This document shows positions 40,012 through 60,096 of a stretch of DNA of 64,000 nt, piece after piece. A program made the translations under genes and the position numbers. Each line of letters begins with the position of its first letter. Position 1 is the first letter of the stretch. Source of the DNA: Akkermansia sp. (GTDB lineage Bacteria > Verrucomicrobiota > Verrucomicrobiia > Verrucomicrobiales > Akkermansiaceae); assembly GCA_017415555.1 (NCBI GenBank), contig JAFQGF010000056.1, forward strand, positions 1 to 64,000, read 5' to 3'. The notes beneath the pieces are model-generated. The model was given only the letters and a program-made list of their open reading frames with translations, did not search any database and was not told where the DNA came from.

Positions 40012-40278
40012 ATGAATAATACAGCAAATACAGACGGAACGCCCCGACGTATCGCCCCCGCGGCGACGCTTGGCGTATTTACACTGGCCATGATAAATGT
40101 GGCCGCCATTGTGAGTCTGCGAGGCTTGCCTGCAGAAAGTACCTATGGTCTCAGCTCGGCCTTCTATTACCTATTTGCGGCCGTGTTTTTTCTGGTGCCG
40201 GTGTCACTGGTGGCGGCAGAGTTGACGACGGGATGGCCGCAGAAGGCGCACCAGCTCAACAGAGGTGAGGAGGGGTGA
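40012..40278 (+). pseudogene. N-terminal fragment of a GadC-like amino acid permease, cut by the prophage
   Basis: The frame opens MNNTANTDGTPRRIAPAATLGVF and shows the first two helices of an APC-superfamily antiporter (FTLAMINVAAIVSLRGLP and FYYLFAAVFFLVPVSLVAAEL), then TTGWPQK. In glutamate:GABA antiporter-like proteins TGWPxK is followed by GGVYRWV. Here it changes to AHQLNRGEEG and stops. The break is at about 40246. The remainder should lie beyond the right end of the prophage, outside the window. Confidence 0.75.
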
Positions 40279-40458
40279 TTTATGGGTGATAACCGTTGAA
40301 AACGCGCTCTTTGCATAGTTCAAATCACCCTTACCGGATGTTGCGGCGGTTGCGGTGTAACGTGTGGCGTTTTCTCAAATAGTTGAGGGAAGACAGGAAC
40401 AAAAAAAGCCCGGCAGGTTTAACGCCCGCCGGGTGTTGTGTGTTCGCGGATCCGCAAA

Positions 40459-40995
40459 TCATGAAGCCGCCACAAACGCGCGAAGCGTGCCCCATTCGTC
40501 ACGCGAAATGCGCACATGAAGGAAACGGTCAAGAAAATGGCGGGCATAGTGTACGGGGCCGCTGCAATGTGCCGGCTCAGGGCCACAGGCCGCCCCGGCA
40601 ATGTATGCCACCGCGTCAATGATGGTTTGGCGGTCATATAGCTGCGGGAGCTCTGCGCGGGCTCTGGTGGCTGCTTCACGGCGTTGGGCTGCTACTTCCC
40701 CGGGCTGCCAAGAAAGCTCGCTGTCGGGCGTCCTGTGGCGTGGACGCATGAAAAGCGAGCCGTCACCATCACGCGCTACGGAGAGGCAGAGGTAAGCACG
40801 CAGAAAGTGACGGGCGAAAAACTCAGCGCCGTTGCATTCTTCCGGCTCCGGCCCGGCGGCCACCCATACCAGCCGGGCGAGAAAGTCAGAAAGAGCGAAG
40901 CCGCCCCGCAGTTTAGGCAGAGCGGCTCGCATGATGTGAAACGCACGGCGGCGCGGGTCTTCATGATAACCGGTGGCAATGAACACGGGCGTCAT
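40459..40995 (-). CDS. Phage early protein with an internal duplication
   Basis: Unrecognised, 178 residues. Two halves resemble each other: AAGPEPEECNGAEFFARHFLRAYLCLSVARD and ACGPEPAHCSGPVHYARHFLDRFLHVRISRD, each followed by a short variable stretch. It is the last early gene and overlaps the preceding stop by 4 nt (ATGA). About 180 bp beyond it toward the host junction hold no gene. Confidence 0.65.
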   Translation of the reverse strand: MTPVFIATGYHEDPRRRAFHIMRAALPKLRGGFALSDFLARLVWVAAGPEPEECNGAEFFARHFLRAYLCLSVARDGDGSLFMRPRHRTPDSELSWQPGEVAAQRREAATRARAELPQLYDRQTIIDAVAYIAGAACGPEPAHCSGPVHYARHFLDRFLHVRISRDEWGTLRAFVAAS

Positions 40996-41594
40996 GACGT
41001 GGCAGCGGTTTTCAGTTTTCGTTTAGGCATCACCGGCTGCGGCTCCACCAGCACAGCCCCGAAATGCTCAGCAAGCCCGCCGGGTGGCAATGTGATAGCG
41101 GTGTGCGGTTCCGGTACATCACCCGCTCCACAGGTTGCGGCCACCTTTCGGGTTTTTGAGCGCCCGCGATTGTTTACGGTATAAACAAGCTGCCATACCT
41201 GTGAAGCTGACAGCGTGGCGCAAAGCTCTGCCACCGTGGCGCTGGTGCCACGGGTAATGTTGAACTTGTCACGCACCAGCGCTGCCACGTAGCCCACGGT
41301 CAGCTCATGGCGGTGCAGATGTATCTCGAGAATGCGCACGGCTTTGGCCTGTGCGTCCGGCGTGCGATCAGGGCGCGGCGGCACACCTGCCAACGTGGCA
41401 AACGCATTCCACGCGGGCACAAAATCGGCCTGTTCCAATTTGCGGAAACTTTCCTTGCCGGTAGCGTCAAAACAGGTGGCGTGGCGGAAGTCATCCACGC
41501 TGGCAAAGTCTAGCGCAAAACCGGCTTGCCGCCATGCCTTTTGGGCGATGACGGCAAGGGAAGTGATTTGCTTACTGCTCAGATTGCGTGCCAT
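40992..41594 (-). CDS. Phage early protein, possible GemA-position regulator
   Basis: The 200-residue protein starts MARNLSSKQITSLAVIAQKAWRQAG. Its position after the Gam-like gene is where Mu-like phages carry GemA/gp16-type proteins, and the N-terminal half is helical. The similarity is not strong enough to name it. The start overlaps the Gam-like gene by 23 nt. Confidence 0.6.
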   Translation of the reverse strand: MARNLSSKQITSLAVIAQKAWRQAGFALDFASVDDFRHATCFDATGKESFRKLEQADFVPAWNAFATLAGVPPRPDRTPDAQAKAVRILEIHLHRHELTVGYVAALVRDKFNITRGTSATVAELCATLSASQVWQLVYTVNNRGRSKTRKVAATCGAGDVPEPHTAITLPPGGLAEHFGAVLVEPQPVMPKRKLKTAATS

Positions 41595-42108
41595 TGTCTT
41601 TCGGTTCAATGAAGAAAGTTTCCTTTTGCTGCAACTTCAAGCCAAGCTTGGTGAGGTTAGCCGTGCGCAGGTGGGCAGCCTTGATGGCGCTTTTGTTCAC
41701 TTCCGGCTCTTTCCAGATGAGCCAGAAACGTGCGAGCCGTGGGTATTTCTCGCGGATGTACTCAGCCACGCCCGCCCAATTTCTGCGCTTGCTGGCCAGT
41801 ACCAGAGAGGGCGCGGGGAAATTGAAGCCAAAGCGGGCCAGCGTGGTGGCTGCGGATTTTTTGCCTGCCTCAAAGAGCGCAGCGCGGTTTTCTGTAGCAT
41901 AGGCGGCGCAAGCGTCAGATATGCCGGCAAGTAATTCTTTCTTTGCCTTAATGGCCACCTCTGCGCGTTCGCGTACTTCCTGCAATTCCTTGTCGCGGTC
42001 TGCTTCCAGCCTGCGGATTTCCACGCTCAGCGTGGCTGCGGTGTCAACCTTGGCGAAGAATTCAGCCTCAGTTTCAATGCCTGTTTTCTGTGTTTTGATT
42101 CGTGCCAT
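41572..42108 (-). CDS. Gam-like host-nuclease inhibitor
   Basis: A 178-residue protein. Mu Gam binds DNA ends and shields them from RecBCD-type nucleases. The protein opens MARIKTQKTGIETEAEFF, then a long charged helix (RRLEADRDKELQEVRERAEVAIKAKKELL, about 31-60) and a C-terminal KAAHLRTANLTKLGLKLQQKETFFIEPK like Gam. The start at 42108 follows an A/C-rich, SD-free leader like the other phage genes. Confidence 0.8.
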   Translation of the reverse strand: MARIKTQKTGIETEAEFFAKVDTAATLSVEIRRLEADRDKELQEVRERAEVAIKAKKELLAGISDACAAYATENRAALFEAGKKSAATTLARFGFNFPAPSLVLASKRRNWAGVAEYIREKYPRLARFWLIWKEPEVNKSAIKAAHLRTANLTKLGLKLQQKETFFIEPKDNGTQSEQ

Positions 42109-42131
42109 AATGGTTTTGGTTGGGTTGGGGA

Positions 42132-42452
42132 TTAGGTAAGATCTGCAAGCACGGCAAGCGCACCAAGCTTGCCGGGAATAACGCCCCAAAAAGGATCTAC
42201 CGCGTCAAAGCCGCAACTTTGCAGCGTATCGCGCAGCTTGCGGCAGCAAGTCAATGCTGTTCCCTCTGTGCATGTGTACCACACCACAGCAAGCTTGGTG
42301 CCGTCTTTTTCAACACGCATGAGCCCGGCCTCTGATTTGTCACCGGTAAGGCGCAAAAGCGCGCGGTCAAGTCTGCCCATATCCTCGGGGCTTACGCTGT
42401 CCGCCGTCATGGCTTCCAGCATTTCAAAAGTTAAAAGTTCCACCTGTTGCAT
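42132..42452 (-). CDS. Small phage early protein
   Basis: 106 residues from Met at 42452 (MQQVELLTFEMLEAM). It is acidic at the N-terminus and has CTEGTALTCCRKLRDTLQSCGFDAVDP in the middle. It lies between the MuB-like and Gam-like genes in the leftward transcript. No family is recognised. Confidence 0.6.
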   Translation of the reverse strand: MQQVELLTFEMLEAMTADSVSPEDMGRLDRALLRLTGDKSEAGLMRVEKDGTKLAVVWYTCTEGTALTCCRKLRDTLQSCGFDAVDPFWGVIPGKLGALAVLADLT

Positions 42453-42471
42453 GATACTTTTTCGGTTGAGG

Positions 42472-43500
42472 TTAAACCAAGCCGTCAAGGCGTTTATTTG
42501 CACCGATAAAGCTTGCAATGGTGAAGCTCTTACCGTCACGTGCGGCAGCCCATGCAGCAAAGCGCAGGCGGCGAGTAAATCGGCCGATGCCTTGCTCTTG
42601 CGCAGTCACCACCACGTAGTCCAAATCTTTGGCGGCCGGGCTTGGCAAGCCGTATGCAGCCAACACGCGCAGCACGTCTGCCGTATCCATGCAATCAGGC
42701 AAGTTGAGAATCTCGCCGCGCCGCTCAAACTGCGAGAGAATGCCGGCAAGCTCAGCGGCCTTGCTTTCCATGGGGCTAAGCTGTTGCCCTGCCTTGTAAC
42801 CGGCAGCCATGCGGGTTGTGAAAATCTCAGTGGTGGCAATCACCATGCCTGCCCGGTTTTTGATGCAGTCGTAAAGCTCGCGCAAGTGTTCCCATACGCG
42901 GCAGCAATCCAGCCGCCCGGCGGTGGTAAAAGTCTGGTGGGCTTCATCTATAATGAAGAGATCGCCGGGGCGTGCCCAATCGGCCAGCGCGTCAATGGCG
43001 GCGCTGGCGTCCCATGTACCGGGCAGCCCGGCAGCCGCGAGCAGGCGGCGGCTCAGTTTGGAAACCGTGGGCGCAGTGGGCATGCGTACCATGATAACGC
43101 GGCCGGGCAACTCCGGGCGGCTCTTGTACTGTTCCAGCGCTTCCGTTTTGCCAATCTGCGTGCGACCCACCACCCATGTGAGGGAGGCGTCCCGTTGAGC
43201 CATTTTGCAAGCCGTCATAATGCGCCGGGCGATTTCCGTTTCAATGAAACCGATTCGCTTACCGCTCAGCACAGCCTCGAGGTATCGCTGCCGGGCCTCT
43301 TCCACCTTGGCAATGGCCGCAGTGAGGTTGCCCTCAAAGTTGCCGTTTTTGAGTTTCAGCACGGTGGTGGCGGTGAGCCCGGTTTGCTCTGCCACTTTGG
43401 CGGCGCTTGCGGTTTTGAGCTGTTCGCGCAGCCATGCCAGATTTACTTCACGGAGCAGGATTTCTTCCTGCTGATCCTTGGTAATTATTTCGTTTTTCAT
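42472..43500 (-). CDS. MuB-like AAA+ ATPase (transposition target factor)
   Basis: MuB binds target DNA with ATP and stimulates the transposase. The 342-residue protein has an N-terminal helix-turn-helix (AAKVAEQTGLTATTVLKLKNGNFEGN, 33-58), Walker A GRTQIGKT (113-119) and Walker B DLFIIDEAHQ (about 180). This is the MuB arrangement. It lies 27 nt after the transposase gene. Confidence 0.88.
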   Translation of the reverse strand: MKNEIITKDQQEEILLREVNLAWLREQLKTASAAKVAEQTGLTATTVLKLKNGNFEGNLTAAIAKVEEARQRYLEAVLSGKRIGFIETEIARRIMTACKMAQRDASLTWVVGRTQIGKTEALEQYKSRPELPGRVIMVRMPTAPTVSKLSRRLLAAAGLPGTWDASAAIDALADWARPGDLFIIDEAHQTFTTAGRLDCCRVWEHLRELYDCIKNRAGMVIATTEIFTTRMAAGYKAGQQLSPMESKAAELAGILSQFERRGEILNLPDCMDTADVLRVLAAYGLPSPAAKDLDYVVVTAQEQGIGRFTRRLRFAAWAAARDGKSFTIASFIGANKRLDGLV

Positions 43501-43527
43501 TTTGTTTGTTTATGGGGGGTAAAATGG

Positions 43528-45522
43528 TTAAATATCGAAGGGGTTTGCGCCGTAGCTGTCAAGATTGCGGCGCGGGGTTTCAGCGATGGCGCGGCGTTCA
43601 TAGCGGCGGGTGGTGCGCTCGCTTATTTCCACCACTTCACGGCGTGCAATGGCGAGCGGGTCAGCCGGTTCACCTTCCATGATTCGGAGGTTGTACTCAT
43701 TGAGCCCGGCGAGCTCGCGTTCCATGGGGGCCATATCGGTGCGCAGCTCTTCCAGCATATCGGCATTGCGTTTTTTATTGCGTGCCCATTGGCGGCGAAT
43801 GGCCTCTTCATCGTGGCGGGGTGCGGCCTGTATCTGCCGGGCAATACCAAGCAGGCGGTTGCCGGCGTCAAACACAAACAGCTTGTCCGGTGCAAAGGGG
43901 TTTACAATGCCCGTGAGCCCGTCTTCCTTGTAGCGGATTTCTCTTTCATAGCCTCGCCCGTCAATGATGCGGGTTTCGTACCACAAATCCTGCCCGCAAA
44001 GTTCGCCGTCCTTATCTCGCCACACGAACTTTGCACCGTCACGCCTCAGCGGTCTGCGCAGGCGTTTTGAGGTAGTCAGCAACATGGCGCATTGCTCAGC
44101 GGTAAAGCGGCGCAATTTATTGCCCGGTTGCTGCATGGCGGTGTCCCACGCTTCATCGGGGCTCATGCGGCGCAGGCGGCGGCAGGCGGGCGGCAACTGT
44201 GCCACAAATTCAACCATGCCGGGATTATTGGCAATGCGGGCAATGGGGCCCCAATTTCCTTCCGCCGGATTAAGGCTGAATTCCGGCAGGCAAAAGCCGC
44301 ATTCTTCCCACCCTTCCAGCGCGTGATCACAGCGCGCATTTATCATGGCTACCACCTTGTTAATTTCCTGATTCAGTTCAAGGAAAGATGGCAAGTGGTG
44401 GTTCAAGCGGGCGGCTTTATCAATGGGCAAATCAAGCGCATGTTTCAGCAGCTTTTTTTCCGCTTCAATGATGCCGTGCAAGGTCTCCGGCGGTTGGCGG
44501 TCTTTACCCACAGAGCCGGGGCCATAGCAAATCGTGTTGTGAAAGAGATTATGCCAGCTTTCGATGTGTGCTTTATGGTTGGGGTTGCCCACGGCGCGGC
44601 CACCGTAGCCACCCAGCACCGCCTGCTTGGCACCTATCATGCCGGAGCGGTCAACGCGTATCATGCCGCCGCTCATGGCAGCGAGCAGCTCTTCCAGCTC
44701 CGGGCTGATTGCGGCCGTGCCGTTTTCCACCACAAAGGTGGTGCCGCGCTCTGCATTGTAACCATAAGTCATGAGCAGATCACAAACCACAAGCAACATT
44801 TCATCACCATTGAGGTAGACGTGGGTGCCGTCTTTTCTGGTGTGGCGGAACTTGGTTCCGTAACTCAAACGGCGGCCGGTGTAAAAATCCAGCGTGCCGA
44901 TTTGGAAGCAGCGGTCAATTTCGTTCCCGTAGTAGGACAGGCGGTCAACCCATACGTCATCGAAGAAAACGAAGGCAAGCGGCCAGCTACCCACCCGCGT
45001 GGTGAAGGTCTGCGCCATAAGCGGCTTGGCTTGGCGCAAGCCCTTGCGGTAGATGGCAAGCTCTTTTTTAGGCGGCAGCAGTTTGGCAAGGTTGGGAAAG
45101 CTCCACCCCTGCGGCAAGCTGTTGCGTTTGTAGTTTTTCTCATAGCCGGGGATGGTTTCGCCTGCGTACCACATTTCAAGCAGTCTTTTGTAGGCGGCTT
45201 TTGTGCTGCGTTGGGAATTGGCCACCATAGCGCGCCAAAAGCTCAGGAAGCGCGGATTTTTCACCGCAGAGCGCGGGGCCTTGCGCCCCGCCTTGCGGCC
45301 GTCCAGCAGAGCCTCGCTGCCGTCTTTTTTCCAAGCAAGGAATTTTCTTTCCATAGTCTTTACGGATATGTTCACGCCGTGCGCTGCAAGGTACTTCACG
45401 CCCCAATCGTAGGCTTCACCACGTACGGCGAAGTCCTGCACGTGCTTACAGACGTGTTCCAACAGCACGGCAGTGGTGCGCTCCTCAATATCAATCGGCA
45501 ATTCTGCCAAGTAGCTTGTCAT
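43528..45522 (-). CDS. MuA-type DDE transposase with altered catalytic triad
   Basis: The 664-residue protein joins phage ends to target DNA. N-terminal DNA-binding parts precede an RNase H-like core. The likely residues are D188/D189 in FFDDVWVDRL, E266 in VVENGTAAI where an Asp is expected, and E321 in NPNHKAHIESWHNLF. A C-terminal basic and coiled segment follows (about 585-650), the region that in MuA contacts MuB. The reading frame is intact and the length matches MuA (663). Confidence 0.9.
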   Translation of the reverse strand: MTSYLAELPIDIEERTTAVLLEHVCKHVQDFAVRGEAYDWGVKYLAAHGVNISVKTMERKFLAWKKDGSEALLDGRKAGRKAPRSAVKNPRFLSFWRAMVANSQRSTKAAYKRLLEMWYAGETIPGYEKNYKRNSLPQGWSFPNLAKLLPPKKELAIYRKGLRQAKPLMAQTFTTRVGSWPLAFVFFDDVWVDRLSYYGNEIDRCFQIGTLDFYTGRRLSYGTKFRHTRKDGTHVYLNGDEMLLVVCDLLMTYGYNAERGTTFVVENGTAAISPELEELLAAMSGGMIRVDRSGMIGAKQAVLGGYGGRAVGNPNHKAHIESWHNLFHNTICYGPGSVGKDRQPPETLHGIIEAEKKLLKHALDLPIDKAARLNHHLPSFLELNQEINKVVAMINARCDHALEGWEECGFCLPEFSLNPAEGNWGPIARIANNPGMVEFVAQLPPACRRLRRMSPDEAWDTAMQQPGNKLRRFTAEQCAMLLTTSKRLRRPLRRDGAKFVWRDKDGELCGQDLWYETRIIDGRGYEREIRYKEDGLTGIVNPFAPDKLFVFDAGNRLLGIARQIQAAPRHDEEAIRRQWARNKKRNADMLEELRTDMAPMERELAGLNEYNLRIMEGEPADPLAIARREVVEISERTTRRYERRAIAETPRRNLDSYGANPFDI

Positions 45523-45546
45523 GGCACAGAGTTTGGGTTAATGGGG

Positions 45547-46452
45547 TTATGCGTTGAGTTCGCGGCGTGCTGCTGCCAGCAGCTCTTCCAGCTTGGAGAT
45601 TACCGCCTCACGGCTGTTGCGGTTCATGTTGCGCCAATCGTGCTGAATGATGACTTCCCAACCGGCCAGCCACTTACTGGTGGCGGCCCATGCGTTTTCT
45701 GCCAATTCATCCACACTCATCAGCCCGGCGGCGGGGTTTTCATCCTGCATGGTAATGGCGGGCTTATCGGGAGCGGGCAGCATGGAGAGATCGGCAATAA
45801 ACTTGTTCAGGCTGGTAGCGTCACCCGCGAGCTGTTCCAGTACCGGCAGCGTGGCCGCTCGCCGTCCTTCCAGCATATCGCGAAGTTGAGCAGCAAGCAC
45901 GCCGGTGAGGTTGCACTGTTTGGCACGGTTGGCCACCAGCGTGGCAACGGCGATGTACTTGTCGGCGGTCTTGCGGGTGAAGGCAAAGCAACCCGGGCCG
46001 GTTTTACCAAAGCGCTTGCCCCATGTACCATGGGCACCAGTGCGCTTGACTTCATCCAGCACAAAGCCCAATGCCACGCACTGCGATATATTGCGTTTGA
46101 TGAGGTCTACCAGCGCCTCATTATTCTTGCGGCAGCGTTTTTCCAGATTGTTGGCCATGGCGATGGCTTCCTCTGTGCTCAGGCCAAGAGTTATGCTTTC
46201 CACCGTTTCGACAGCCGGCGGCTCTGTGGTTTCTGCGGTGTCCGACTCTGCGGTCACGTCTATGATTTCGCTGCCTGCGTTTTCCTCAAAGGGAAACACA
46301 GTTTGCCCACGGGCGGCGCGCAGGTCTGACTCTGTAACGTCAGCCACGCAGGTTTTGCCCATGGCAATCAGGTTGGCAGTGGTGCTTTCCCCGTATTCCT
46401 GCACCATGACAAGGCGGGCCGGGGCCGATATTGTTTGTGTATTATTGTTCAT
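45547..46452 (-). CDS. Phage early protein with DUF3102-like core
   Basis: The 301-residue protein has an acidic linker (about 60-90). Its core, QCVALGFVLDEVKRTGAHGTWGKRF and FTRKTADKYIAVATLVAN (about 125-170), recalls DUF3102-type proteins of mobile elements. The ending is a charged helix. It precedes the transposase gene in the leftward transcript by 24 nt. The function is unknown; a DNA-binding role is plausible. Confidence 0.65.
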   Translation of the reverse strand: MNNNTQTISAPARLVMVQEYGESTTANLIAMGKTCVADVTESDLRAARGQTVFPFEENAGSEIIDVTAESDTAETTEPPAVETVESITLGLSTEEAIAMANNLEKRCRKNNEALVDLIKRNISQCVALGFVLDEVKRTGAHGTWGKRFGKTGPGCFAFTRKTADKYIAVATLVANRAKQCNLTGVLAAQLRDMLEGRRAATLPVLEQLAGDATSLNKFIADLSMLPAPDKPAITMQDENPAAGLMSVDELAENAWAATSKWLAGWEVIIQHDWRNMNRNSREAVISKLEELLAAARRELNA

Positions 46453-46684
46453 TGTGATTGATTTGGTTGATAAGAGCGCGGCGCATTTTACGCAGCGCGG
46501 TTTGAGTGATGCGGAAAAGCTGAATGCGGCTCACGCCCATGATGGTTGCCACTACCTCTTCCGGATCCCCGCCGCAGGGCATGGGCGGCAAGCCGGCACG
46601 GCGGCGGAACTCCGGCACGCTCAGCAGGGCCACGGCGATGGCCTGCTCGCGTTCGCGCTCGCGCTGTTGGCGGCTTTTGCTCAT
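46442..46684 (-). CDS. Sigma-70 region 4-like small DNA-binding protein
   Basis: An 80-residue protein. The C-terminal half (VVATIMGVSRIQLFRITQTALRKMRRAL) closely follows the region 4.2 helix-turn-helix of sigma-70 factors (GVSRERVRQIEKKALRKLR type). There is no room for regions 1-3. It overlaps the next gene by 11 nt. It could redirect host RNA polymerase or act as an activator like Mor/C of Mu. Confidence 0.65.
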   Translation of the reverse strand: MSKSRQQREREREQAIAVALLSVPEFRRRAGLPPMPCGGDPEEVVATIMGVSRIQLFRITQTALRKMRRALINQINHNEQ

Positions 46685-46695
46685 GTGGGAGAAAA

Positions 46696-46923
46696 TCAGA
46701 ATGCGCCACGTGTGTGGCAGGTGGCAAATTCATGAGTTGGCGGCAAGGTGTTTTCCGGTGCTTCCCATTCCGGGCATTCCGGTGAGAATCCGCTGTGTGG
46801 GTATTCCGGTGCGTCCCAATGCTCCGCCACATGAGCCACCACGAAGGGCAGGCACATGAGGGCAAAGAGGAACAGCAGGAAGTAGAAGAGGAAGCGCAGC
46901 AGCTCCAAGAGGTCATCGAACAT
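46696..46923 (-). CDS. Small membrane protein
   Basis: 75 residues. A strongly hydrophobic helix (LLRFLFYFLLFLFALMCLPFVVAHVA, about 8-33) is followed by a Pro/Glu-rich tail with a Cys and His. It lies between phage early genes in the same orientation. It is unrecognised; superinfection exclusion or inhibition of host membrane functions is possible. Confidence 0.5.
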   Translation of the reverse strand: MFDDLLELLRFLFYFLLFLFALMCLPFVVAHVAEHWDAPEYPHSGFSPECPEWEAPENTLPPTHEFATCHTRGAF

Positions 46924-46946
46924 GGGCGGGCGGCAGGGCTACGGAT

Positions 46947-47543
46947 TCAGCGGGCGGCGTGGGTAGGTTCCGGCAGGGTAAAGCCCGGCGTGGGCTCTGC
47001 ACTCTCTGCCTTGCGTATGTAATAGCTGCAATGCACTTCAAAGCGGGTGAGCGCTTCCGTGCTTGCCGGGTCTTCCGGTAAACCGGGCACCAGCAGGGTT
47101 TTGTTGTCGTATGCCAAGCGGCAGAATACACCAAGGGTGCGGCGGTAGTGCTTGCTGCCTGCAAGGTGGCGCAGCACGGGCAGCGTGCCCTCCGGCTCTG
47201 TGGCGCTGAATACCAGCTCGCCGCTGGCATAGCACCACGCAATCATTTTCGGTTTCTGTTTCATTTCGTTTGTTGGAGTGGGTTTTGGTGGGAGGATAGG
47301 GGATGTGGTGATCAATCTTTTGCGCATTTTTTCAGTAAGCAACAAGTACCAATTCTGAGGTGGAATGCTCGGTGTGCCTCGCTGCCAGCGTTTGAACAGG
47401 AAACGCAGCTCAGCGGCAGTCACCAATTCCTCTGTTATAGTGTAGTGCTCCATAAGCAGGCAGCGAAGCTCTGCCGCTGCCTGCTCGTAGGCTGTGGCGC
47501 AACGCGGTTCAACATCCTGCCATGCGCAGAATAGTTTGCGCAT
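46947..47543 (-). CDS. Phage early protein (start uncertain)
   Basis: 198 residues from Met 47543. An in-frame ATG at 47264 (MKQKPKMIAW) is preceded by the CAACAAACGAA-type leader seen before other phage genes and would give 105 residues. The first part (CATAYEQAAAELRCLLMEHYTITEELVTAAELRFLF) is helical. The second part has RRTLGVFCRLAYDNKTLLVPG. Either one gene or two in-frame products. The family is unknown. Confidence 0.5.
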   Translation of the reverse strand: MRKLFCAWQDVEPRCATAYEQAAAELRCLLMEHYTITEELVTAAELRFLFKRWQRGTPSIPPQNWYLLLTEKMRKRLITTSPILPPKPTPTNEMKQKPKMIAWCYASGELVFSATEPEGTLPVLRHLAGSKHYRRTLGVFCRLAYDNKTLLVPGLPEDPASTEALTRFEVHCSYYIRKAESAEPTPGFTLPEPTHAAR

Positions 47544-47587
47544 GTGCGAAAGAATGCAAAAATCTATATAGCAAAGTTCCATGGCAA

Positions 47588-47923
47588 TTATGCAGAGGGG
47601 CAATGGTTCATGGCTCCGGCAGCGGTGCGGATGGCCGCTGCCATGCGGTTGATTTCCGCTTCCAGCTCATGCGCAATCTTGCTTTCATGGAAGGGGCGGG
47701 CAAAGGCGGCGAATGTTTCGCATTCCTGCATTTCGTACTTGTAGGCACTCACCCACCGGCTGAGCTTGGAAAAGATGATAAGCCCGGTTTCCTTTTCCAG
47801 TTTCCACAGCGCGCAAAATACGTCTTTATCCGTATTCGGTAGCGCCATGTACAGGGCCTCTGCGTGGGTGAATTCGTTGGCGTACTGCTCGCCAACACGG
47901 GCGGTGAATTCTTGCTGGTTCAT
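47588..47923 (-). CDS. Phage early protein, helical
   Basis: 111 residues, MNQQEFTARVGEQYANEFTHAEALYMALP, mostly helical and acidic. Second gene of the leftward early transcript after the small regulator. No family is recognised. Confidence 0.55.
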   Translation of the reverse strand: MNQQEFTARVGEQYANEFTHAEALYMALPNTDKDVFCALWKLEKETGLIIFSKLSRWVSAYKYEMQECETFAAFARPFHESKIAHELEAEINRMAAAIRTAAGAMNHCPSA

Positions 47924-47944
47924 TATGTTTGCAGGTTGGGTGGG

Positions 47945-48148
47945 TTAAGAGTGCAAAATCTCGCGTAAAGTGAGCCTGCGTTGAGGTAATGCGACTAAAC
48001 GAGCCATTAAAGACTTGCTTTGCCGTTCACCGCGCAACACACATGAAACGTGGGTCGGAGATACTTTCAACACCTTTGCTGCTTGGCGTATAGTGTAGCC
48101 GCGCGCGTAAAGTTCGTTACTGTTCATTTTTTGCGATTGATTATCCAT
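47945..48148 (-). CDS. Ner/Cro-like small regulator
   Basis: 67 residues from Met 48148 (MDNQSQKMNSNELYARG); Met 48127 is an alternative. A helix-turn-helix is clear in YTIRQAAKVLKVSPTHVSCVLRG. It is the first early gene and is transcribed divergently from the XRE repressor, the position of Mu Ner. It probably controls the early promoter. Confidence 0.7.
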   Translation of the reverse strand: MDNQSQKMNSNELYARGYTIRQAAKVLKVSPTHVSCVLRGERQSKSLMARLVALPQRRLTLREILHS

Positions 48149-48236
48149 AAGAAATTTGATAGTATCGTGTAACGCGGTATTCTTAACCGCTCCACAGGTG
48201 AAAATAAACCAAATTAACCAGCAAGTCAAGAATAAA
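48149..48236. promoter_or_regulatory. Early/repressor control region of the prophage
   Basis: 88 bp between divergent regulator genes. GTGTAACGCGG at 48167-48177 recurs exactly at 48645-48655, just after the repressor gene, and as GTGTAACGTG at 40355-40364 near the left end. These are good operator candidates. Confidence 0.5.
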
Positions 48237-48644
48237 ATGGATAATTCTGCTATTTTATTGGATAATTTACGGGAGCTAGTGAAGAACAGCGGCAGGTCTC
48301 AAAAGGAGCTTGCCGCTGATGCTGGTATTACACCCGTTACCCTTAATCGTTGGCTACAAGGAAAAAGAGAGCCAAGAGAAGAAGAGCTTACCCGGCTTTT
48401 GGGCGTGCTGGGCGTGAGTGCTGAAATTATCCGCAAGTCGGATAATTTAACCAAGGAAGGGCAGCCCACGGATACATTGGAAGCGTGGAAAGCACGTGCG
48501 CTGCGTGCAGAAAGCGAGCTTGCCGTACTTAAAGGTAGCAGTGGGCCTTATGAGGGAATGACAGCAGAAGAATATCTTGCTCGCTTGCATTCTAGCATGC
48601 GATTTGTGCTTTCATTTATTACAAAGGAAACTTTTACGCCGTAA
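48237..48644 (+). CDS. XRE-family phage repressor
   Basis: 135 residues. The helix-turn-helix is RSQKELAADAGITPVTLNRWLQGKREP (about 18-44), followed by a helical C-terminal part (WKARALRAESELAVLKG) that may dimerise. No peptidase catalytic residues of LexA-type repressors are seen. It is divergent from the early genes, so it is the likely lysogeny repressor. Confidence 0.8.
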   Translation: MDNSAILLDNLRELVKNSGRSQKELAADAGITPVTLNRWLQGKREPREEELTRLLGVLGVSAEIIRKSDNLTKEGQPTDTLEAWKARALRAESELAVLKGSSGPYEGMTAEEYLARLHSSMRFVLSFITKETFTP

Positions 48645-48655
48645 GTGTAACGCGG
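48645..48655 (+). promoter_or_regulatory. Second copy of the candidate operator
   Basis: GTGTAACGCGG, identical to 48167-48177. It overlaps the last base of the repressor stop codon and lies upstream of the AT-rich gene at 48710. Confidence 0.45.
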
Positions 48656-48709
48656 CACATTTGGGAACCGGGTTACAAATGGCAGAACTGATAATAGAAC
48701 AGGTAAAAT

Positions 48710-49351
48710 ATGACCCAATGGAGAAAATCGTACGATGTTACCAGAACAGAGCGCTGGGTGTTTGTCTTGGCATTGGCAAGGGTTGCTCGGTGCCGTTATG
48801 ATGATGAATTGATGGAATGCAGCCGTGAAAATGACCTTGAATGGTACTCGCAGAGTTTAACAAAAATTGATAATGTTTTGACGTCTGAGAAGATTTCAAA
48901 AACGATGAGAGAAATTTGGGCGACTCTCTTTCAAAAAGGTTATTTCCCCGATATTCCAAACTCGCAAGGGTTGGGGGTTAGTTTAAGGCTTTTATTTTTA
49001 GAAGATATTGCAAGAAGTTTATTGAGGGTAGAATTACCAGATCAGAGCCGCTGTTTCGTTGATACAATAATGAAAAAAATGACGTTGTATTACCGAAAAA
49101 GCATGGATGCGCTCATTGAAGGAATGACAACGAAAGCGTGGAAGTATATTGGAGCTGATTGGCTGATGGAAAAAATAGGCCTGACAAGTAATTATCTTGA
49201 TATTCCCCCGGCCGCAATTCCTGAGAATTACTCAAGAAGCGTCCAAGATACAGAGAAATTATTGTCAGAAATGCTGTTGGCGCAACCTTCACAGCCCAAT
49301 CTAACCACGTCAAGAAGATTGGTGGATGTGTTCAATGCATGTTTACCCTGA
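48710..49351 (+). CDS. AT-rich prophage accessory protein (moron candidate)
   Basis: A 213-residue cytoplasmic, helical protein without a recognised family: MTQWRKSYDVTRTERWVFVL, SLTKIDNVLTSEKISKTMREIW, YRKSMDALIEGMTTKAWKYIG. Base composition is clearly more AT-rich than the phage genes around it. It has its own terminator and lies next to the repressor, a place where lysogenic-conversion or defence genes often sit. Confidence 0.6.
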   Translation: MTQWRKSYDVTRTERWVFVLALARVARCRYDDELMECSRENDLEWYSQSLTKIDNVLTSEKISKTMREIWATLFQKGYFPDIPNSQGLGVSLRLLFLEDIARSLLRVELPDQSRCFVDTIMKKMTLYYRKSMDALIEGMTTKAWKYIGADWLMEKIGLTSNYLDIPPAAIPENYSRSVQDTEKLLSEMLLAQPSQPNLTTSRRLVDVFNACLP

Positions 49352-49352
49352 T

Positions 49353-49386
49353 TTCCCCGCCCCGGAGCCCGCCGGGGCTTTTTTAT
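49353..49386 (+). terminator. Terminator of the accessory gene
   Basis: GCCCCGG pairs with CCGGGGC and is followed by T6. Confidence 0.8.
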
Positions 49387-49396
49387 TGCCTACCGC

Positions 49397-49651
49397 TCAG
49401 AAGAGTTCAAGCTGAGTGAGCTTGGCCTGAGTGTCTTCATAGTCTTGGCGGGCGTGGGTGATGCGGGATTTTTGGACAGCGGCAAGGGCTATTTCATCCA
49501 CCAGCCACATGCGGCCGCGCTGGCCGCGCGGTTTCCATGCCACCAAATCGCCGGCAGCAATCATCCGCCGGACTTGGGATTCTGAATAACGGAGGGCGGC
49601 GGCAGCTTGCGCCACGGTGATGCCCTTTGGCATGCTGAGACTCTTAACCAT
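49397..49651 (-). CDS. Excisionase/MerR-like helix-turn-helix protein
   Basis: 84 residues from Met 49651 (MVKSLSMPKGITVAQAAAALRYSESQVRRMIAAGDLVAWKPRG). The HTH_17-type pattern and the SESQVRRMIAAGDL helix mark the excisionase/DNA-binding family. The longer upstream frame is repeat-derived (YARYSRYARY) and rejected. Convergent with the accessory gene. Confidence 0.75.
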   Translation of the reverse strand: MVKSLSMPKGITVAQAAAALRYSESQVRRMIAAGDLVAWKPRGQRGRMWLVDEIALAAVQKSRITHARQDYEDTQAKLTQLELF

Positions 49652-49785
49652 GGGGCTATTGTAGCACAGGTGGGAGCGGATGTTACATGGAAAGTGTGAC
49701 TTTTTTTCAAAAAAGTTGAAAATATGGGGATTTATGCGCGTGGTGGCGCATAAATGTGCAGATTGCGGGCACGGGGTAAAATAGC

Positions 49786-49830
49786 GCGCATAACGTGAAT
49801 AACGCGCATAGCGCGCATAATGCGCATAAC
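49786..49830. repeat. Five tandem 9-bp repeats
   Basis: GCGCATAAC, GTGAATAAC, GCGCATAGC, GCGCATAAT, GCGCATAAC in direct series. They lie in the 340-bp gene-free gap (49652-49992) between the HTH gene and the amidase gene, which otherwise holds only AT-rich sequence. They look like binding sites for a regulator or transposase. Confidence 0.8.
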
Positions 49831-49992
49831 GAAGTAACATGGGGCAGCGGTGGTGATATATTGCGTGGCACAGAGCAGTATTGCTTTTTCATTTTGTTTG
49901 TGAAATGGCCGCCCGGTGGCAGATTCTTAACCATACAACACCCACCGGGCGGCAAACAAACAGACAGCGCAAAACACGAGAGCAAACACGGA

Positions 49993-50631
49993 ATGAAGAT
50001 TAACCATATATGCCTGATGCCCGGCCACAGTACGAAAGACGGTGGTGCGGTGGTATGCGGGGAGCCGGAGCCGGGGCTGAGTGAATATCAGCTTGCGAGC
50101 CGCTACCTGCCGGAGATAGCACGCGGTCTGCGGGCGCGTGGCTATGATGTGACGATAACCAGCCGCGAGCAAGCGGGCGGCACCACGCCCTCATACAGCG
50201 GGCGTGCAGCACTGGCCACGGGGGCGCAACTGGCCGTGGAGTTTCATTTCAACAGCGCCGGAGCAAGTGCCAGCGGCGCAGAATGCTTGTACTGGTATGC
50301 CAGCAGCAAGGGTGAGTATGTGGCCAAGGTGTTGGCGGGAAGCTGTGCGACAGTGCTTGGCCTGCGCAACAGGGGAGCAAAGCCGCGATTCAGCAATGCC
50401 GTACAGGCGCGTGCCCACGGGTATGATGCAAGCGCGGCACGTGGCGCGGGCATGTTTGAAACCTGTTGGGATAGCCCGCAAGTGTGCATATCGGTAATGG
50501 TAGAGCCGTGTTTTGCGGGCAGTAATGAGGTGGACGCTGTGCGACTGTTGCGCACGGTGGCCAATGGAGAATTTGCCGCAGCCATGGTGGAAGCCATAGA
50601 CATGGCGGCGAAAGGAATTGAAAACAACTGA
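49993..50631 (+). CDS. Phage endolysin, N-acetylmuramoyl-L-alanine amidase (Amidase_3)
   Basis: The 212-residue enzyme cuts the amide bond between MurNAc and the stem peptide. Zinc ligands are seen as His in LMPGHSTKDGG, Glu in LSEYQLA and His in AVEFHFNSAG; a catalytic Glu is in VMVEPCF. The start at 49993 (MKINHICLMPGHS) removes a repeat-derived extension. It has no signal peptide, so it needs a holin, probably the next gene. Confidence 0.9.
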   Translation: MKINHICLMPGHSTKDGGAVVCGEPEPGLSEYQLASRYLPEIARGLRARGYDVTITSREQAGGTTPSYSGRAALATGAQLAVEFHFNSAGASASGAECLYWYASSKGEYVAKVLAGSCATVLGLRNRGAKPRFSNAVQARAHGYDASAARGAGMFETCWDSPQVCISVMVEPCFAGSNEVDAVRLLRTVANGEFAAAMVEAIDMAAKGIENN

Positions 50632-50645
50632 GCACGCTTGGCACC

Positions 50646-50957
50646 ATGATGGCAACGGTAATAGCAGCGGCATTGGAGCCAACAGAGGCGCAGCAATGGT
50701 GGTGGGTGTTTGCCGCCGTGATAACAACCTGCGCGGGCTGGTTTGGCTGGCAGAAGTTGAAGCAAAGCGGTGATGGCGGCTATGTGACACGTAAAGAACA
50801 CCGTGAGGATATAACCCGGCTGCATAAAAAGATTGAAGAGAGCGACAACCGGACGCAGCAACAGCTCAACACCATTACAGCCGTGCTGTACCGCGTGGAC
50901 GGCAAGCTTGAAGTGATGGCCGGCAAACCCACGCCCAATGATACCAAGAAAGAATAA
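50646..50957 (+). CDS. Holin-like small membrane protein
   Basis: 103 residues, one TM with aromatic border (QQWWWVFAAVITTCAGWFGWQKL, about 16-38), then a charged coiled-coil (EHREDITRLHKKIEESDNRTQQQLNTITAVL). It lies 14 nt after the amidase. This could be a holin or an inner-membrane spanin-type protein. Confidence 0.65.
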   Translation: MMATVIAAALEPTEAQQWWWVFAAVITTCAGWFGWQKLKQSGDGGYVTRKEHREDITRLHKKIEESDNRTQQQLNTITAVLYRVDGKLEVMAGKPTPNDTKKE

Positions 50958-51002
50958 CCCCCAATCGGGATTTACGAATTACGATTTACGAATTACGAAG
51001 TT

Positions 51003-51272
51003 ATGAGCAGCTACGAAGAGAACGCCCGCCTGCGGCTTGAGATCCTGCGCCAACTTGCCCAGACGCCGGCAGGCTATATGCAGGCCGAAACGCCGCTATT
51101 CAACAGCGTGGCACTGGCCATGTGCCCCGACCCTACGCGGGCAGATTTTACCGCCGCGCTTGCGCGGTTGGAAGCAGATAAAGCCATACTGTGCGAGACT
51201 ACGCCGTACAGGGGCAAGCTGTACACCATCACCGCCTACGGGCGCGCATGCCTTGCAGATGCGCTGAATTAA
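51003..51272 (+). CDS. Winged-helix-like phage protein
   Basis: 89 residues (MSSYEENARLRLEILRQLAQTPAGYMQAETPLFN), with a wing-like RGKLYTITAYGRACL. It is in the position of Mu gp25/gp26, before the gp27-like gene. The leader contains TTTACGAATTACGA repeats like those in the host intergenic islands. Confidence 0.65.
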   Translation: MSSYEENARLRLEILRQLAQTPAGYMQAETPLFNSVALAMCPDPTRADFTAALARLEADKAILCETTPYRGKLYTITAYGRACLADALN

Positions 51273-51280
51273 CCGCCGCC

Positions 51281-51796
51281 ATGACCCCGACCCACCAGAA
51301 GAAGCTGAGAGCTGACAGCAAATTTGCCCTGCTCACCGAAGAGCAGCGCGGGGAGCTGGCCGACCTGATGCTTAGCGGGCAGGCAACGCAGCGGGATGCG
51401 CTTGATTGGTTGGCCGGCCACGGTGTAACGGTAAGCGCACAGAGCTTGAGCGAGTATTACCGCAACCGGGTTTTGCCGTTGCGTTATGAGCGCATGATAG
51501 CGGCTGCCGCCACGCTGAACAAACTGCGCAGCGCAGAGGTGGCCAGCGCCACGCATGAAGCGGTGGCACAGCGTGCCTTTCAGCTCGCCACGGAGCAGGA
51601 AATGGATCCGAAACTGCTTGCCACCTTTTATACCCTCATGCTGCAAGGGCAGCAGAGTGACCGCGAAGAGCGCAAGCTGCGCTTGGCCGAAGATCGGGCA
51701 CGCAAGGCCGATGAAGCCGAAGCCGCTGCCAAGGATAGCACGCTCACCCCGGAGCAGAAGGCAGAGCGTATCAAGGCCATTTTCGGCCTGAATTAA
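51281..51796 (+). CDS. DUF3486/Mu gp27-like protein (terminase small-subunit position)
   Basis: 171 residues. The N-terminal DNA-binding part is TEEQRGELADLMLSGQATQRDALDWLAGHGVTVSAQSLSEYYRN, with a long helical C-terminus. In Mu-like phages gp27 precedes the large terminase and probably recognises DNA for packaging. It starts 8 nt after the previous stop. Confidence 0.8.
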   Translation: MTPTHQKKLRADSKFALLTEEQRGELADLMLSGQATQRDALDWLAGHGVTVSAQSLSEYYRNRVLPLRYERMIAAAATLNKLRSAEVASATHEAVAQRAFQLATEQEMDPKLLATFYTLMLQGQQSDREERKLRLAEDRARKADEAEAAAKDSTLTPEQKAERIKAIFGLN

Positions 51797-51830
51797 GCAA
51801 GATTTTACCTGCAAAGAGAGAGCAAGAATC

Positions 51831-53354
51831 ATGGGAAACAAGACACCACGCACTGCCACAGGGAAAGCGAAGGCGAAAGCCCCCGCCAAGGCGGCGCGTG
51901 GTGATGCGGCCATTGCCGCAAACCCGCTCAATATCCTTTTACCCTACCAGCGCGCAGTGGTAGAAGACAAGAGCCGCTTTCTTGCGTGCTGTTTCAGCCG
52001 TCAGAGCGGCAAGAGCTTTACCGTTGCCGCGCGTGAAGCCCGGCGGCTCATGAGTGTGCCGAAGCTTACTGTGGTGATAGCTGCGCCGTCAGAGCGTCAG
52101 AGCCATGAAAGCCTTGAAAAAGTAAAAGACTGGTTGCGGGCATTTGGTGAGGCTTACGCAGATGAGGAAGAATTTTTCAGCGGTGATGAGATAGAAAAGA
52201 GCTTCAAAGCGAAGGCAATCAAGCTGCCGAATGAAAGCCGCTGCATAGCGGTGCCGGGGCGCCCTGACACGGTGCGCGGTTTCTCTGGTGATATTTGGCT
52301 TGATGAGTTTGCTTTCTTTGAGGATCCGGCGAGCACATGGAAGGCGATTGTCCCCTCAATCCTCAACCCGCTGCGCGGTGGTGAAAAGAGCTTCATCATA
52401 ACCAGTACCCCGAATGGTAAGGGGGCACGCGGCAAGCGTTTTTATGAGATAATGACCGGGCAGGCAAGTGGCAAATGGGCCACGCATTTGGTGCCGCTGA
52501 AAAAGGCGATTGCAGATGGCCTGCCGGTTGATTATGACGAAATGTGCGCCCTGCTGGCAGACCCTCTGGCCATTGCTCAGGAATTGGATTGCGAATTCTT
52601 GGACGCTACGAACGAGCTGCTGCCGCTTGATTTGATAGCCGCTGCCACCAGTACGGAGGCCACGCTGACCCGCCCGGCAGAGTGGTGGCAGCAGGCACGT
52701 GCGCGCCGGGCTGATATACGGCTTGGCATTGACTTTGGGCGAACGAATGACCCAACCGTATGCGTGGCGTTGGAAAAGGTGGCCGGGCTTGAGGTGGTGC
52801 GGGAAGTGCTGGTACTGCGCAACATGCCCACCGATGAGCAGGAAGCTATATTAACCACCCGCGTGGGCGTGTGTGTGCGCGCGTGCCATGACTACACAGG
52901 CCCGGGCATTGGGCTTGGCGATTATCTGGTGCGCACGCATGGTGAGTACAAGCCCACCGGGCACCATTTGGGCAAGGTGGAACTGTGCCGCTTTTCGCAA
53001 CAGTTCAAGTGTGAGATATTCCCGCGCTTGCGCCGCGCCTTTGAGCCACCGGTGGTGATACGTATTCCGGCAGATCCCGCCCTGCGCGATGACCTGCACG
53101 CCATGCAGCAGCTTGTAAGTGGTGAGCATTTTTCGTATGAAGCACCGCGCACCAAAGAGGGGCACAGCGACCGCTGCACGGCCTTGGCCTTGGCACACCG
53201 TGCCTGTGAGGGTGCGGTGGTGTGCGCCCCGCAAAGCTACCGCAGCCGGGCAACCGGCAACCCACGCCGCCGCACAGGTGCGCGGCAGAAGTTGAACCGC
53301 ACCATTATGCAGAACGTAGCCGCGCGCCATGCCGTGCGCGGGCAAATCCGCTGA
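51831..53354 (+). CDS. Terminase large subunit (Mu gp28-like)
   Basis: The 507-residue motor packages DNA. Walker A is in CCFSRQSGKSFTVAA (about 42-56), Walker B in DIWLDEFAFF (about 155), coupling motif in SFIITSTPNGKG. The RNase H-like nuclease has Asp in LGIDFGRTNDPTV (about 300) and later acidic residues. The N-terminus is basic and Ala-rich. Confidence 0.93.
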   Translation: MGNKTPRTATGKAKAKAPAKAARGDAAIAANPLNILLPYQRAVVEDKSRFLACCFSRQSGKSFTVAAREARRLMSVPKLTVVIAAPSERQSHESLEKVKDWLRAFGEAYADEEEFFSGDEIEKSFKAKAIKLPNESRCIAVPGRPDTVRGFSGDIWLDEFAFFEDPASTWKAIVPSILNPLRGGEKSFIITSTPNGKGARGKRFYEIMTGQASGKWATHLVPLKKAIADGLPVDYDEMCALLADPLAIAQELDCEFLDATNELLPLDLIAAATSTEATLTRPAEWWQQARARRADIRLGIDFGRTNDPTVCVALEKVAGLEVVREVLVLRNMPTDEQEAILTTRVGVCVRACHDYTGPGIGLGDYLVRTHGEYKPTGHHLGKVELCRFSQQFKCEIFPRLRRAFEPPVVIRIPADPALRDDLHAMQQLVSGEHFSYEAPRTKEGHSDRCTALALAHRACEGAVVCAPQSYRSRATGNPRRRTGARQKLNRTIMQNVAARHAVRGQIR

Positions 53355-53368
53355 GAGAGAGAATAAAC

Positions 53369-55639
53369 ATGCTGACCGATACCACAGAGACAAGCCTATC
53401 CCTTACAAAAGCGCGCCACATTGGCGGGCGAGTGGCTCAGGAGTTCCGCCGTGCAAGCGCGGGAGCCCTGCGCCCCGGCCGTGCCGCAGAGCGTGCGCAG
53501 AAAAACCAGCTTCAACAGCTCACGGCAGAGCGGTGCGCTGACCTTTACAACGCCCTGCGCCGTGGGTGGCTGGCAGATGTGATGATTGCATGGGATGAGC
53601 TGGAAGAGTATGACGACATTCTCAGTACGGTGGCCGACAAGCGCGCGGCCGGGTTGGCAGAGTGTGAGGCAAGCATATTGCCGGATTCTGCCATGATTGG
53701 TGAGAATGAAGAATTGCGCGCCATGGCCGACCGGCAACAGGCTTTCCTCGTGCATTACCTCAGCCGTATTGTGAACATGGAAGAGGCAATCGCGCACCTT
53801 GGCAGTGCTGCTTTCCGTGGCTTTGCCCACTTGTACAAGCACACGCGAGAGGACGGCAGCCTGCAACTGGTGGTGTTCCCGCAGTGGTACTTTGCCCGCC
53901 CTGCGGGTACGGGCTATCTTTTGAACCCGACAGCAGCGAGCAGCACCGGCGAGCTTTACGAGCTGAACCCGGCAAGCTGGATTGTGCGAGAGGTGAAGCG
54001 GCCCATTGATTTGGTGGCCATGTTTGCCTGTGTGGCTAAGTACAACGCAGAGCAAGGCAATGCCAGTTTCTTGGAGGTTTTCGGCAATCCTTCCATTTTC
54101 TTTGAGTACCCGCCCGGCACCAGCGATGAGCGCGCCCGCGAATATGACGCGGTGGTGCGCGAGATGATAGGCGATGGGCGCGGCGGCTTCCCTGCCGGTG
54201 GCAAAATTACCACGGTGGAAAGCAAGGCCGCCGGCGGGCAAAGTTTCATTGATGCAGCCACTTGGGCCAACAAAAAGATTGTGCGCAAGGCGCTTGGCGG
54301 CGAGCTCACGCTACTGAGCGAGAGCGGCAGCGGCACGCTGGCCGGCGGTGCGCATGAGGATGGCCTGATTTCTCTTTACAAGGCAGATGCCAAGAGTATA
54401 GCCGCCGTGCTGCATGAACAGCTTTTCAAGCCGGCGATACAAGACGCTTTCCCGGGTGCGCCGGTGCTGGTGCGCTACAAGCTCGACTATCCGCAGCAAT
54501 ACGATATTGCCGTGGAAACTGCCGCCATTGCCACGCTGGTGAATGCGGGCTTTAAGCCAAGCACGGAACAGGTGAAAGAGCGCACCGGCTATGATTGCAC
54601 AGAGGTGGCCACCGCTGCTTCACAGGGCATGAATATGGGCACCCCGCCCGCTTGGCAAGGCGGCGGCATGAGCATGAACCGTGAAGAGACGTGGGCTGAT
54701 GGCCCCGGCTACGAGTCTCGCGGGGCTCGCTTTCTACGCCGTGGTGATTCTGTCTCCGATGGCGAAGACGCCGGCGAGTCTCCGACAGAATCAGAGCCGC
54801 CACTGACGGATGACGAATGGGCACAGTTTGAGGCTGCCGGGCAGGTTGATGCCGGACACCTTGAACGCATGCGCGCTGCCATAGAAGCAAAATTAATAGC
54901 GGCGGCAGAGCCGTACAGGGAACAAAACGCGCAAAACGCCCCACAAACGCCTGCAAGCCCTGCGGTGGGTACTTTTACGAAAAACAGGCAAAACACCCCT
55001 GCGGAGCCTATGCGGAGCGCGAAAAACGGGCAAAATGCCCTGCGCGGTGGATTCTTTGGGCGCGTGATGGGGTATATACGGCATATTTTCACGAATAAGG
55101 GGCCGCACAAATGCACGGCTACAAAACGAGCCTGCCCGCTTACTGCGGTGGGCGAACTGGCAGAAAGCTGCAAGCGTGGTTATGTGCGACCGGCGCGTCA
55201 CGAGTCAGCCAAGGCCCGCAAGGAATATCAAGCGGAAATTGCGCAGGCGGCAGCAGAAGGCAAGTTAAGCGTGACAAGTGAAGCCACGGGGCAACCGCTG
55301 GCATTCACAGAGGAAACGGTAAAGCACCTGCGTTTGCAAAATGATCAGCAATATAATATGCGCATGGATAATGTGGGCAACTTTCTTGCCACTGCTCATG
55401 ATCCTGACTATGTGATGGAGCAAAAAAACGGGAAGGAGCTTGAAAGGGTTTATTTGCGCGCGATGAATGACGGAAGCGGCAAAAAGGGCAACCGTGGCAA
55501 AGAACGCTACTTTTGTGTGGTAGAAAAGGCAACCAGCATGCCGGGGCAGATGTATACGGCCTATGAGATAGAAGAATCCGGCAACTACGGAAGGAAAATC
55601 AAGCCAAATAGAATTACGTACCAGAAGAAACGCAGATAA
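53369..55639 (+). CDS. Phage portal protein (DUF935) with C-terminal toxin/RNase-like extension
   Basis: A 756-residue protein. Residues 1 to about 440 match the DUF935/Mu gp29 portal, through which DNA enters the head (IAWDELEEYDDILSTVADKR and FGNPSIFFEYPPGTSDERAREYDAVVREM). A Pro/Gln-rich linker follows (about 460-585). The last 150 residues (LAFTEETVKHLRLQNDQQYN, NVGNFLATAHDPDYVM, KERYFCVVEKATS) resemble the phage barnase/EndoU/ColicinE5-RelE-like domains found on virion proteins. The call for this tail is an inference from pattern. The start is at 53369 (MLTDTTETSLS). Confidence 0.82.
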   Translation: MLTDTTETSLSLTKARHIGGRVAQEFRRASAGALRPGRAAERAQKNQLQQLTAERCADLYNALRRGWLADVMIAWDELEEYDDILSTVADKRAAGLAECEASILPDSAMIGENEELRAMADRQQAFLVHYLSRIVNMEEAIAHLGSAAFRGFAHLYKHTREDGSLQLVVFPQWYFARPAGTGYLLNPTAASSTGELYELNPASWIVREVKRPIDLVAMFACVAKYNAEQGNASFLEVFGNPSIFFEYPPGTSDERAREYDAVVREMIGDGRGGFPAGGKITTVESKAAGGQSFIDAATWANKKIVRKALGGELTLLSESGSGTLAGGAHEDGLISLYKADAKSIAAVLHEQLFKPAIQDAFPGAPVLVRYKLDYPQQYDIAVETAAIATLVNAGFKPSTEQVKERTGYDCTEVATAASQGMNMGTPPAWQGGGMSMNREETWADGPGYESRGARFLRRGDSVSDGEDAGESPTESEPPLTDDEWAQFEAAGQVDAGHLERMRAAIEAKLIAAAEPYREQNAQNAPQTPASPAVGTFTKNRQNTPAEPMRSAKNGQNALRGGFFGRVMGYIRHIFTNKGPHKCTATKRACPLTAVGELAESCKRGYVRPARHESAKARKEYQAEIAQAAAEGKLSVTSEATGQPLAFTEETVKHLRLQNDQQYNMRMDNVGNFLATAHDPDYVMEQKNGKELERVYLRAMNDGSGKKGNRGKERYFCVVEKATSMPGQMYTAYEIEESGNYGRKIKPNRITYQKKRR

Positions 55640-55764
55640 AAAAATCCCGCCGGCGGCTATTTCCGGCGATCGCCCGGGCCTGCTCCTGACGTGATAGCCC
55701 ACACAAAGGAACAGCGGGAACGGGCACAACGTAACACAGCAGCAACATAAAGTCAACAGTAAAA

Positions 55765-60088: not shown

Positions 60089-60096
60089 CACAGACC

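What the first reader, a model, noticed from the sequence alone, without database searches (positions are those of the whole stretch)
40012..40300. Prophage insertion that disrupts a GadC-like permease
The permease frame is intact for the first two helices and then departs at TGWPQK. The lysogen should lack this antiporter, which in other bacteria aids acid resistance or GABA export. This gives the left host-phage junction within a few bases.
Basis: partly seen in the sequence, partly recalled or inferred. Interest (0 to 1): 0.52.

Follow-up and report, generated by a model that had tools for sequence, protein, structure and literature searches.

The report
Jumping phage splits Akkermansia gadC gene
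A virus of the gut bacterium Akkermansia that spreads by jumping into DNA has landed inside a GABA-exchanging transporter gene and cut it in two; the cut itself is ordinary, but this virus lineage leaves an unusually short four-letter scar and this one has unusual ends.

Summary
Confirmed. The GadC-like permease starts at 40012 and stops matching after 40246. The rest lies on the same contig beyond the window, at C6 71157-72419. Joined, the halves make a 498-aa protein scoring 779 bits (cut-off 650) on the NCBI model of the glutamine/GABA antiporter GadC. Relatives carry the uninterrupted gene. The assembly holds no second copy, but is only 79% complete.

The insert is a 30.9-kb transposable (Mu-like) prophage with genes ordered as in phage B3. 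Its transposase model matches the MuA core best (Z 19.4).

The new part is the family's ends. I paired left and right ends of eight insertions, this one included. All eight show a 4-bp target duplication, and in four the fifth base differs. Mu makes 5 bp and B3 6 bp. The window phage has CG...CG termini, where 16 of 19 left ends begin TG and 9 of 10 right ends finish CA. The transposase family has glutamate (E266) where MuA has its second catalytic aspartate, D336.

The gene disruption is ordinary; the termini and duplication length make the phage a new variant of a known kind.

The parts
40012..40246 (+). N-terminal piece (78 codons) of the split GadC-type antiporter; the rest is outside the window at C6 71157-72419
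   Evidence: TIGR03813 E 5.7e-29 for this piece; 668 bits for the other
40243..40246 (.). left copy of the 4-bp target duplication AAGG; right copy at C6 71157-71160
   Evidence: empty site in relatives
40247..64000 (.). transposable prophage, left part; it continues beyond the window to C6 71156 (30.9 kb in all)
40247..40291 (.). left phage end beginning CG, with the TGRG site at nucleotide 20 (40266)
40370..40391 (.). inner left-end site, an inverted repeat of the second right-end site (21 of 22 bases)
40992..41609 (-). early gene of unknown function, conserved in related Akkermansia prophages
   Evidence: no Pfam or PHROG match
41572..42189 (-). Gam-like end-protection protein
   Evidence: PF07352 E 2.7e-11; PHROG 491 E 1.7e-16
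42472..43500 (-). MuB-like transposition ATPase
   Evidence: PHROG 296 E 2.5e-21; AAA_22
43528..45522 (-). MuA-like transposase with D189, E266, E321
   Evidence: PHROG 310 E 3.6e-16; MuA core Z 19.4
48156..48644 (+). helix-turn-helix repressor
   Evidence: PHROG 8 E 9.4e-12 and others
49795..50631 (+). amidase, probable endolysin
   Evidence: Amidase_3 E 1.2e-15
51831..53354 (+). large terminase
   Evidence: PF03237 E 2.8e-12
53222..55639 (+). Mu-type portal protein (longest ORF; the true start may be later)
   Evidence: Portal_Mu E 1.2e-39
55765..56745 (+). Mu I-type protease/scaffold
   Evidence: Mu-like_Pro E 8.5e-15
57204..58160 (+). major head protein
   Evidence: PHROG 1005 E 3.6e-28

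Best explanation
A transposable phage of Akkermansia integrated by transposition into a gadC-type antiporter gene that lies between rpsN and ribH. Its MuA-like transposase, helped by the MuB-like ATPase, joined the two phage ends to the target strands 4 bp apart, and gap repair duplicated AAGG. The gene was cut after codon 78, leaving no frame for a full antiporter. Shown: the two halves, the empty site in relatives, the duplication, both phage ends and the transposition module. Inferred: that the cells lack this antiporter's activity, that the site was chosen nearly at random, and that the phage is still active.
For: Second half found in frame on the same contig; joined protein over the GadC cut-off; 11 of 11 examined relatives uninterrupted at the site; 4-bp duplication in this and seven related insertions, 8 of 8; transposase, ATPase, Gam, Mu portal, Mu protease; MuA core as best structural match; related prophages at other, unrelated sites.
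Against: Single draft assembly of 79% completeness: an intact second copy could be in the missing part, and only some cells may carry the insertion. The phage ends are not the usual TG...CA. No read-level data.
Confidence: 0.95

Rival explanations
1. Assembly chimera: a phage sequence and a host gene were joined wrongly.
For: It is a metagenome-style draft in 65 contigs.
Against: Two separate junctions meet at one codon with a matching 4-bp duplication and restore the frame; the phage ends lie at the positions that relatives predict.
Confidence: 0.03
2. A prophage of the site-specific integrase type whose attachment site lies in gadC.
For: The insertion lies at one clean site.
Against: No integrase turned up among the phage proteins scanned (not every ORF was scanned); a full transposition module is present; related phages sit at unrelated sites with different 4-bp repeats.
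Confidence: 0.01
3. For the ends only: the duplication here is 5 bp (GAAGG), so the phage is one base shorter and its termini are not CG...CG.
For: Five bases do match in this insertion; Mu makes 5 bp.
Against: In 4 of 8 related insertions the fifth base differs; only with 4 bp are the TGRG sites of this phage at nucleotide 20 from both ends, as in relatives; the right end CGTAACG then lines up with the relatives' TGTATCG.
Confidence: 0.08

Closest known systems
Pseudomonas phage B3 (Beetrevirus)
   Same: Gene order: early genes, ATPase and transposase run leftward from a central control region, late genes rightward; related terminase, 29% identical.
   Different: B3 duplicates 6 bp (PMC8705779), here 4 bp; the B3 transposase has D where this one has E266 (B3's place read from the alignment with Mu).
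Phage Mu (Muvirus)
   Same: MuA-fold transposase, MuB-like ATPase, Gam, Mu portal and protease.
   Different: Mu's early genes run rightward; 5-bp duplication; usual TG-CA ends; D-D-E triad.
Leptospira transposable prophages with TA-TA ends
   Same: Transposable prophages whose terminal dinucleotides depart from TG-CA (PMC8705779, section 3.3).
   Different: TA-TA ends and 6-bp repeats there; CG-CG and 4 bp here.
GadC antiporter (TIGR03813; E. coli GadC 4dji)
   Same: The joined host protein passes the equivalog cut-off; its right piece aligns with 4dji.
   Different: Split by the phage after residue 78.

Membership tests
Transposable (Mu-like) phages, broad sense | transposase of MuA fold | tested here: met
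   Z 19.4 over 273 residues to the MuA core; Foldseek E 1.1e-13 to 4fcy; PHROG 310
Transposable (Mu-like) phages, broad sense | MuB-like ATPase beside the transposase | tested here: met
   PHROG 296 E 2.5e-21
Transposable (Mu-like) phages, broad sense | insertion at varied sites, flanked by a short target duplication | tested here: met
   8 of 8 paired insertions, eight different 4-bp repeats
Transposable (Mu-like) phages, broad sense | TG...CA ends (usual, with known exceptions) | tested here: not met
   window phage CG...CG; relatives 16 of 19 left ends TG and 9 of 10 right ends CA, window counted. Not treated as defining, because TA-TA members are accepted
Muvirus or Beetrevirus in the strict sense | 5-bp (Mu) or 6-bp (B3) duplication | tested here: not met
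   4 bp in 8 of 8, fifth base differing in 4; so not filed in either genus
MuA transposases | D-D-E catalytic triad | tested here: inconclusive
   D189 and E266 fall on MuA D269 and D336; E321 by motif and spacing only
Transposable phages | replicative transposition in the lytic cycle | not testable with these tools
   needs induction and sequencing
GadC antiporter (TIGR03813) | score above the equivalog cut-off of 650 bits | tested here: met
   779 bits joined, 668 for the right piece alone

The most novel reading that the evidence does not exclude
Verrucomicrobiota carry a distinct lineage of transposable phages whose transposase uses a D-E-E acidic triad, cuts the target 4 bp apart and tolerates changed terminal base pairs. 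The window phage is the extreme case: it moved with CG...CG ends where the family norm is TG...CA.
Probability: 0.5. Interest if true: 0.5.

Novelty: new variant of a known kind. Interest (0 to 1): 0.35.

Why it matters
For the host: a member of a common gut genus has its only detected gadC-type gene broken by a phage, a small case of strain-level loss of a trait linked to GABA. For mobile DNA: the terminal CA and the D-D-E triad are near-constant in this enzyme superfamily (recalled). A lineage with glutamate in the second acidic position, a 4-bp stagger and changed terminal bases would let the role of these constants be tested in natural variants. PMC8705779 says that the role of the end base pair is not understood well enough to predict the effect of such changes (section 3.3).

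Tried and rejected
Site-specific integration and assembly chimera were rejected for the reasons given under rivals. A 5-bp duplication was my first reading; relatives overturned it. I considered that the left end lay near 40357, because the strongest left-right inverted repeat is inside; the relatives' ends put it at 40247. I first thought that the window phage alone departed from TG; re-reading the end alignments showed two further left ends with GG (G143 and G006:C36), so the claim was weakened from 'unique' to 'most changed'.

Led nowhere: two identical 39-kb stretches in G013 (breakpoint inside a phage gene); exact searches for the window's ends in genome contigs and viral contigs (0 hits); a major-head search of IMG/VR (0 relatives); a right-end search of the genus with the window's own end, which found no clear right end elsewhere; right-end searches by duplication alone. 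Sequence searches of the transposase family against Pfam (no transposase family in 13 of 13) and the PDB (0 hits) gave nothing. Paper searches for Akkermansia transposable phages and a D-E-E MuA gave nothing on point; led to PMC8705779.

Rows left out of the pair count: right ends of G044 (no matching left end found) and G064 (the contig stops at the phage end); left ends of G064, G023, G035, G044, G067, G033 (two), G006:C36, G043:C118, G009 and G042 (no right end found, or no host sequence beyond it). In one search the 'permeaseC' query was translated in the wrong frame; that column is not used.

Full report
OBSERVATION. The reading frame from ATG 40012 encodes 78 residues of a GadC-like permease and leaves it after ...AELTTGWPQK. 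The window is the start of contig C6 (77,864 bp) of a 65-contig assembly, 2.02 Mb and 79.3% complete. A search of that assembly for the permease family PF13520 found one match, at C6 71154-72305, model positions 60-426. With the joined 498-aa protein the assembly gave exactly two matches, residues 1-80 at 40012-40251 and 76-498 at 71151-72419. The joined protein scores 779 bits on TIGR03813, the glutamine/GABA antiporter GadC (cut-off 650), and the right piece alone 668. E. coli GadC (4dji) is the best solved relative of the right piece, E 2.4e-60.

EMPTY SITE. Of 142 genomes searched, 51 same-genus genomes (my count of the listed rows) hold a full-length match with no stop; two others have short fragments. 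In 11 of 11 loci examined (of those 51 genomes) the DNA runs straight through the insertion point. rpsN and ribH flank the permease in 8 of those 11 loci; in the other 3 neither was found within the stretch held.

THE INSERT. From 40247 to C6 71156 lies a 30.9-kb transposable prophage with a MuA-like transposase, MuB-like ATPase, Gam, repressor, amidase, large terminase, Mu portal, Mu protease, major head protein and, next to the right end, a DNA methyltransferase. Early genes run leftward and late genes rightward, as in phage B3 and unlike Mu. The transposase occurs once in this assembly, and 19 of 76 same-genus genomes (this one included) have a relative of it. No phage record matched it at 1e-5; among phage records the terminase reaches about 32% identity in the best-ranked rows, such as Alteromonadaceae phage B23, and 29% in B3.

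THE ENDS. I collected 19 left ends and 10 right ends of this kind of prophage, the window included. All 19 left ends carry TGRG at nucleotide 20. Eight of 10 right ends do too, the other two reading TGCG there, and all 10 have a second such site at nucleotide 42. Left termini: 16 TG, 2 GG (G143 and G006:C36), 1 CG (window). Right termini: 9 CA, 1 CG (window). The 19 left ends are 15 distinct 45-mers, so they are not all independent. For eight insertions both ends were paired. Each has a 4-bp duplication: AAGG (window), TTGC, GGGG, ACCC, ACAA, AGGG, AATG, GTGC. The fifth base differs in four of the eight and matches in four, the window among the latter. In 182 mismatched left-right combinations, 4 bp or more occurred twice. 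Several right ends were found by looking for the duplication or by likeness to a right end so found, so the frame test matters: the joined host is open across the junction in at least one frame for the window (161 of 162 codons) and for G032, G043 and G002 (158 of 158 each), but not for G010 or G024; G143 and G006 were not tested. G024 is a 649-bp remnant with both ends on one contig. The two ends lie on different contigs in G010, G043 and G006. So the stagger is 4 bp, and the window phage most likely moved with CG at both ends, since later mutation of exactly both terminal bases is unlikely (inference).

THE TRANSPOSASE. An alignment of 20 sequences, mostly of Verrucomicrobiota, has D188, D189, E266 and E321 invariant. 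The model (mean pLDDT 80) matches the MuA catalytic core best, Z 19.4, rmsd 3.6 over 273 residues; TnsB reaches 17.3 and IstA 13.9. In the profile alignment with the transposases of Mu, B3 and two other phages (E 1.4e-10), D189 falls on MuA D269 and E266 on D336, as I read the printed alignment; the E321 region was not aligned, so its match to E392 rests on motif and spacing. MuA's triad D269, D336, E392 is from passages of PMC3362531. A D-E-E triad is therefore predicted, not shown.

CONSEQUENCE. The gene is broken after codon 78 of 498. Whether that matters for acid resistance or GABA export is untested. In A. muciniphila the permease Amuc_0037, glutaminase Amuc_0038 and decarboxylase Amuc_0372 are the described GABA genes (passages of PMC10807452); Amuc_0037 was not compared directly. 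No family PF00282 decarboxylase was found here, but about a fifth of the genome is missing.

COMPARISON. Mu duplicates 5 bp and B3 6 bp, and some Leptospira prophages have TA-TA ends (passages and section 3.3 of PMC8705779). A 4-bp duplication and CG-CG ends were not seen in the passages I read; my searches were in an open-access library only, so priority is not claimed.

VERDICT. The gene disruption is ordinary biology of transposable phages. The unusual part is the phage lineage: 4-bp stagger, a terminal base pair that varies, and a predicted D-E-E transposase.

Noticed in passing
L161 (G024:C138, about 4245-4893): A 649-bp remnant with both phage ends, most of the phage deleted, flanked by a 4-bp duplication ACAA.
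   Followed up: partly
L113 (G006:C36) and L073 (G006:C54): One genome holds two related phage left ends at different sites that differ in the terminal base, GG and TG.
   Followed up: partly
window 53222-55639: The portal ORF has a weak C-terminal match to the PBECR2 nuclease-like domain (E 2.7e-4, below the curated cut-off), which suggests a portal fused to a nuclease-like domain.
   Followed up: no
L002 10322-11041 (C6 70322-71041): A DNA methyltransferase gene (N6_N4_Mtase) ends 115 bp before the right phage end; relatives in five of seven genomes searched, two of them (G006, G064) near phage right ends.
   Followed up: partly
L056, L057, L108 (G013:C1 88001-127123) and L104, L106, L107 (G013:C18 38202-77324): Two contigs share at least 39,123 bp at 100% identity in opposite orientation, holding a related transposase; the breakpoint is inside a phage gene, so assembly or recombination is possible.
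   Followed up: partly
own genome G000: No glutamate decarboxylase family PF00282 was found, although a GadC-type antiporter gene was present before the insertion; the assembly is incomplete.
   Followed up: no
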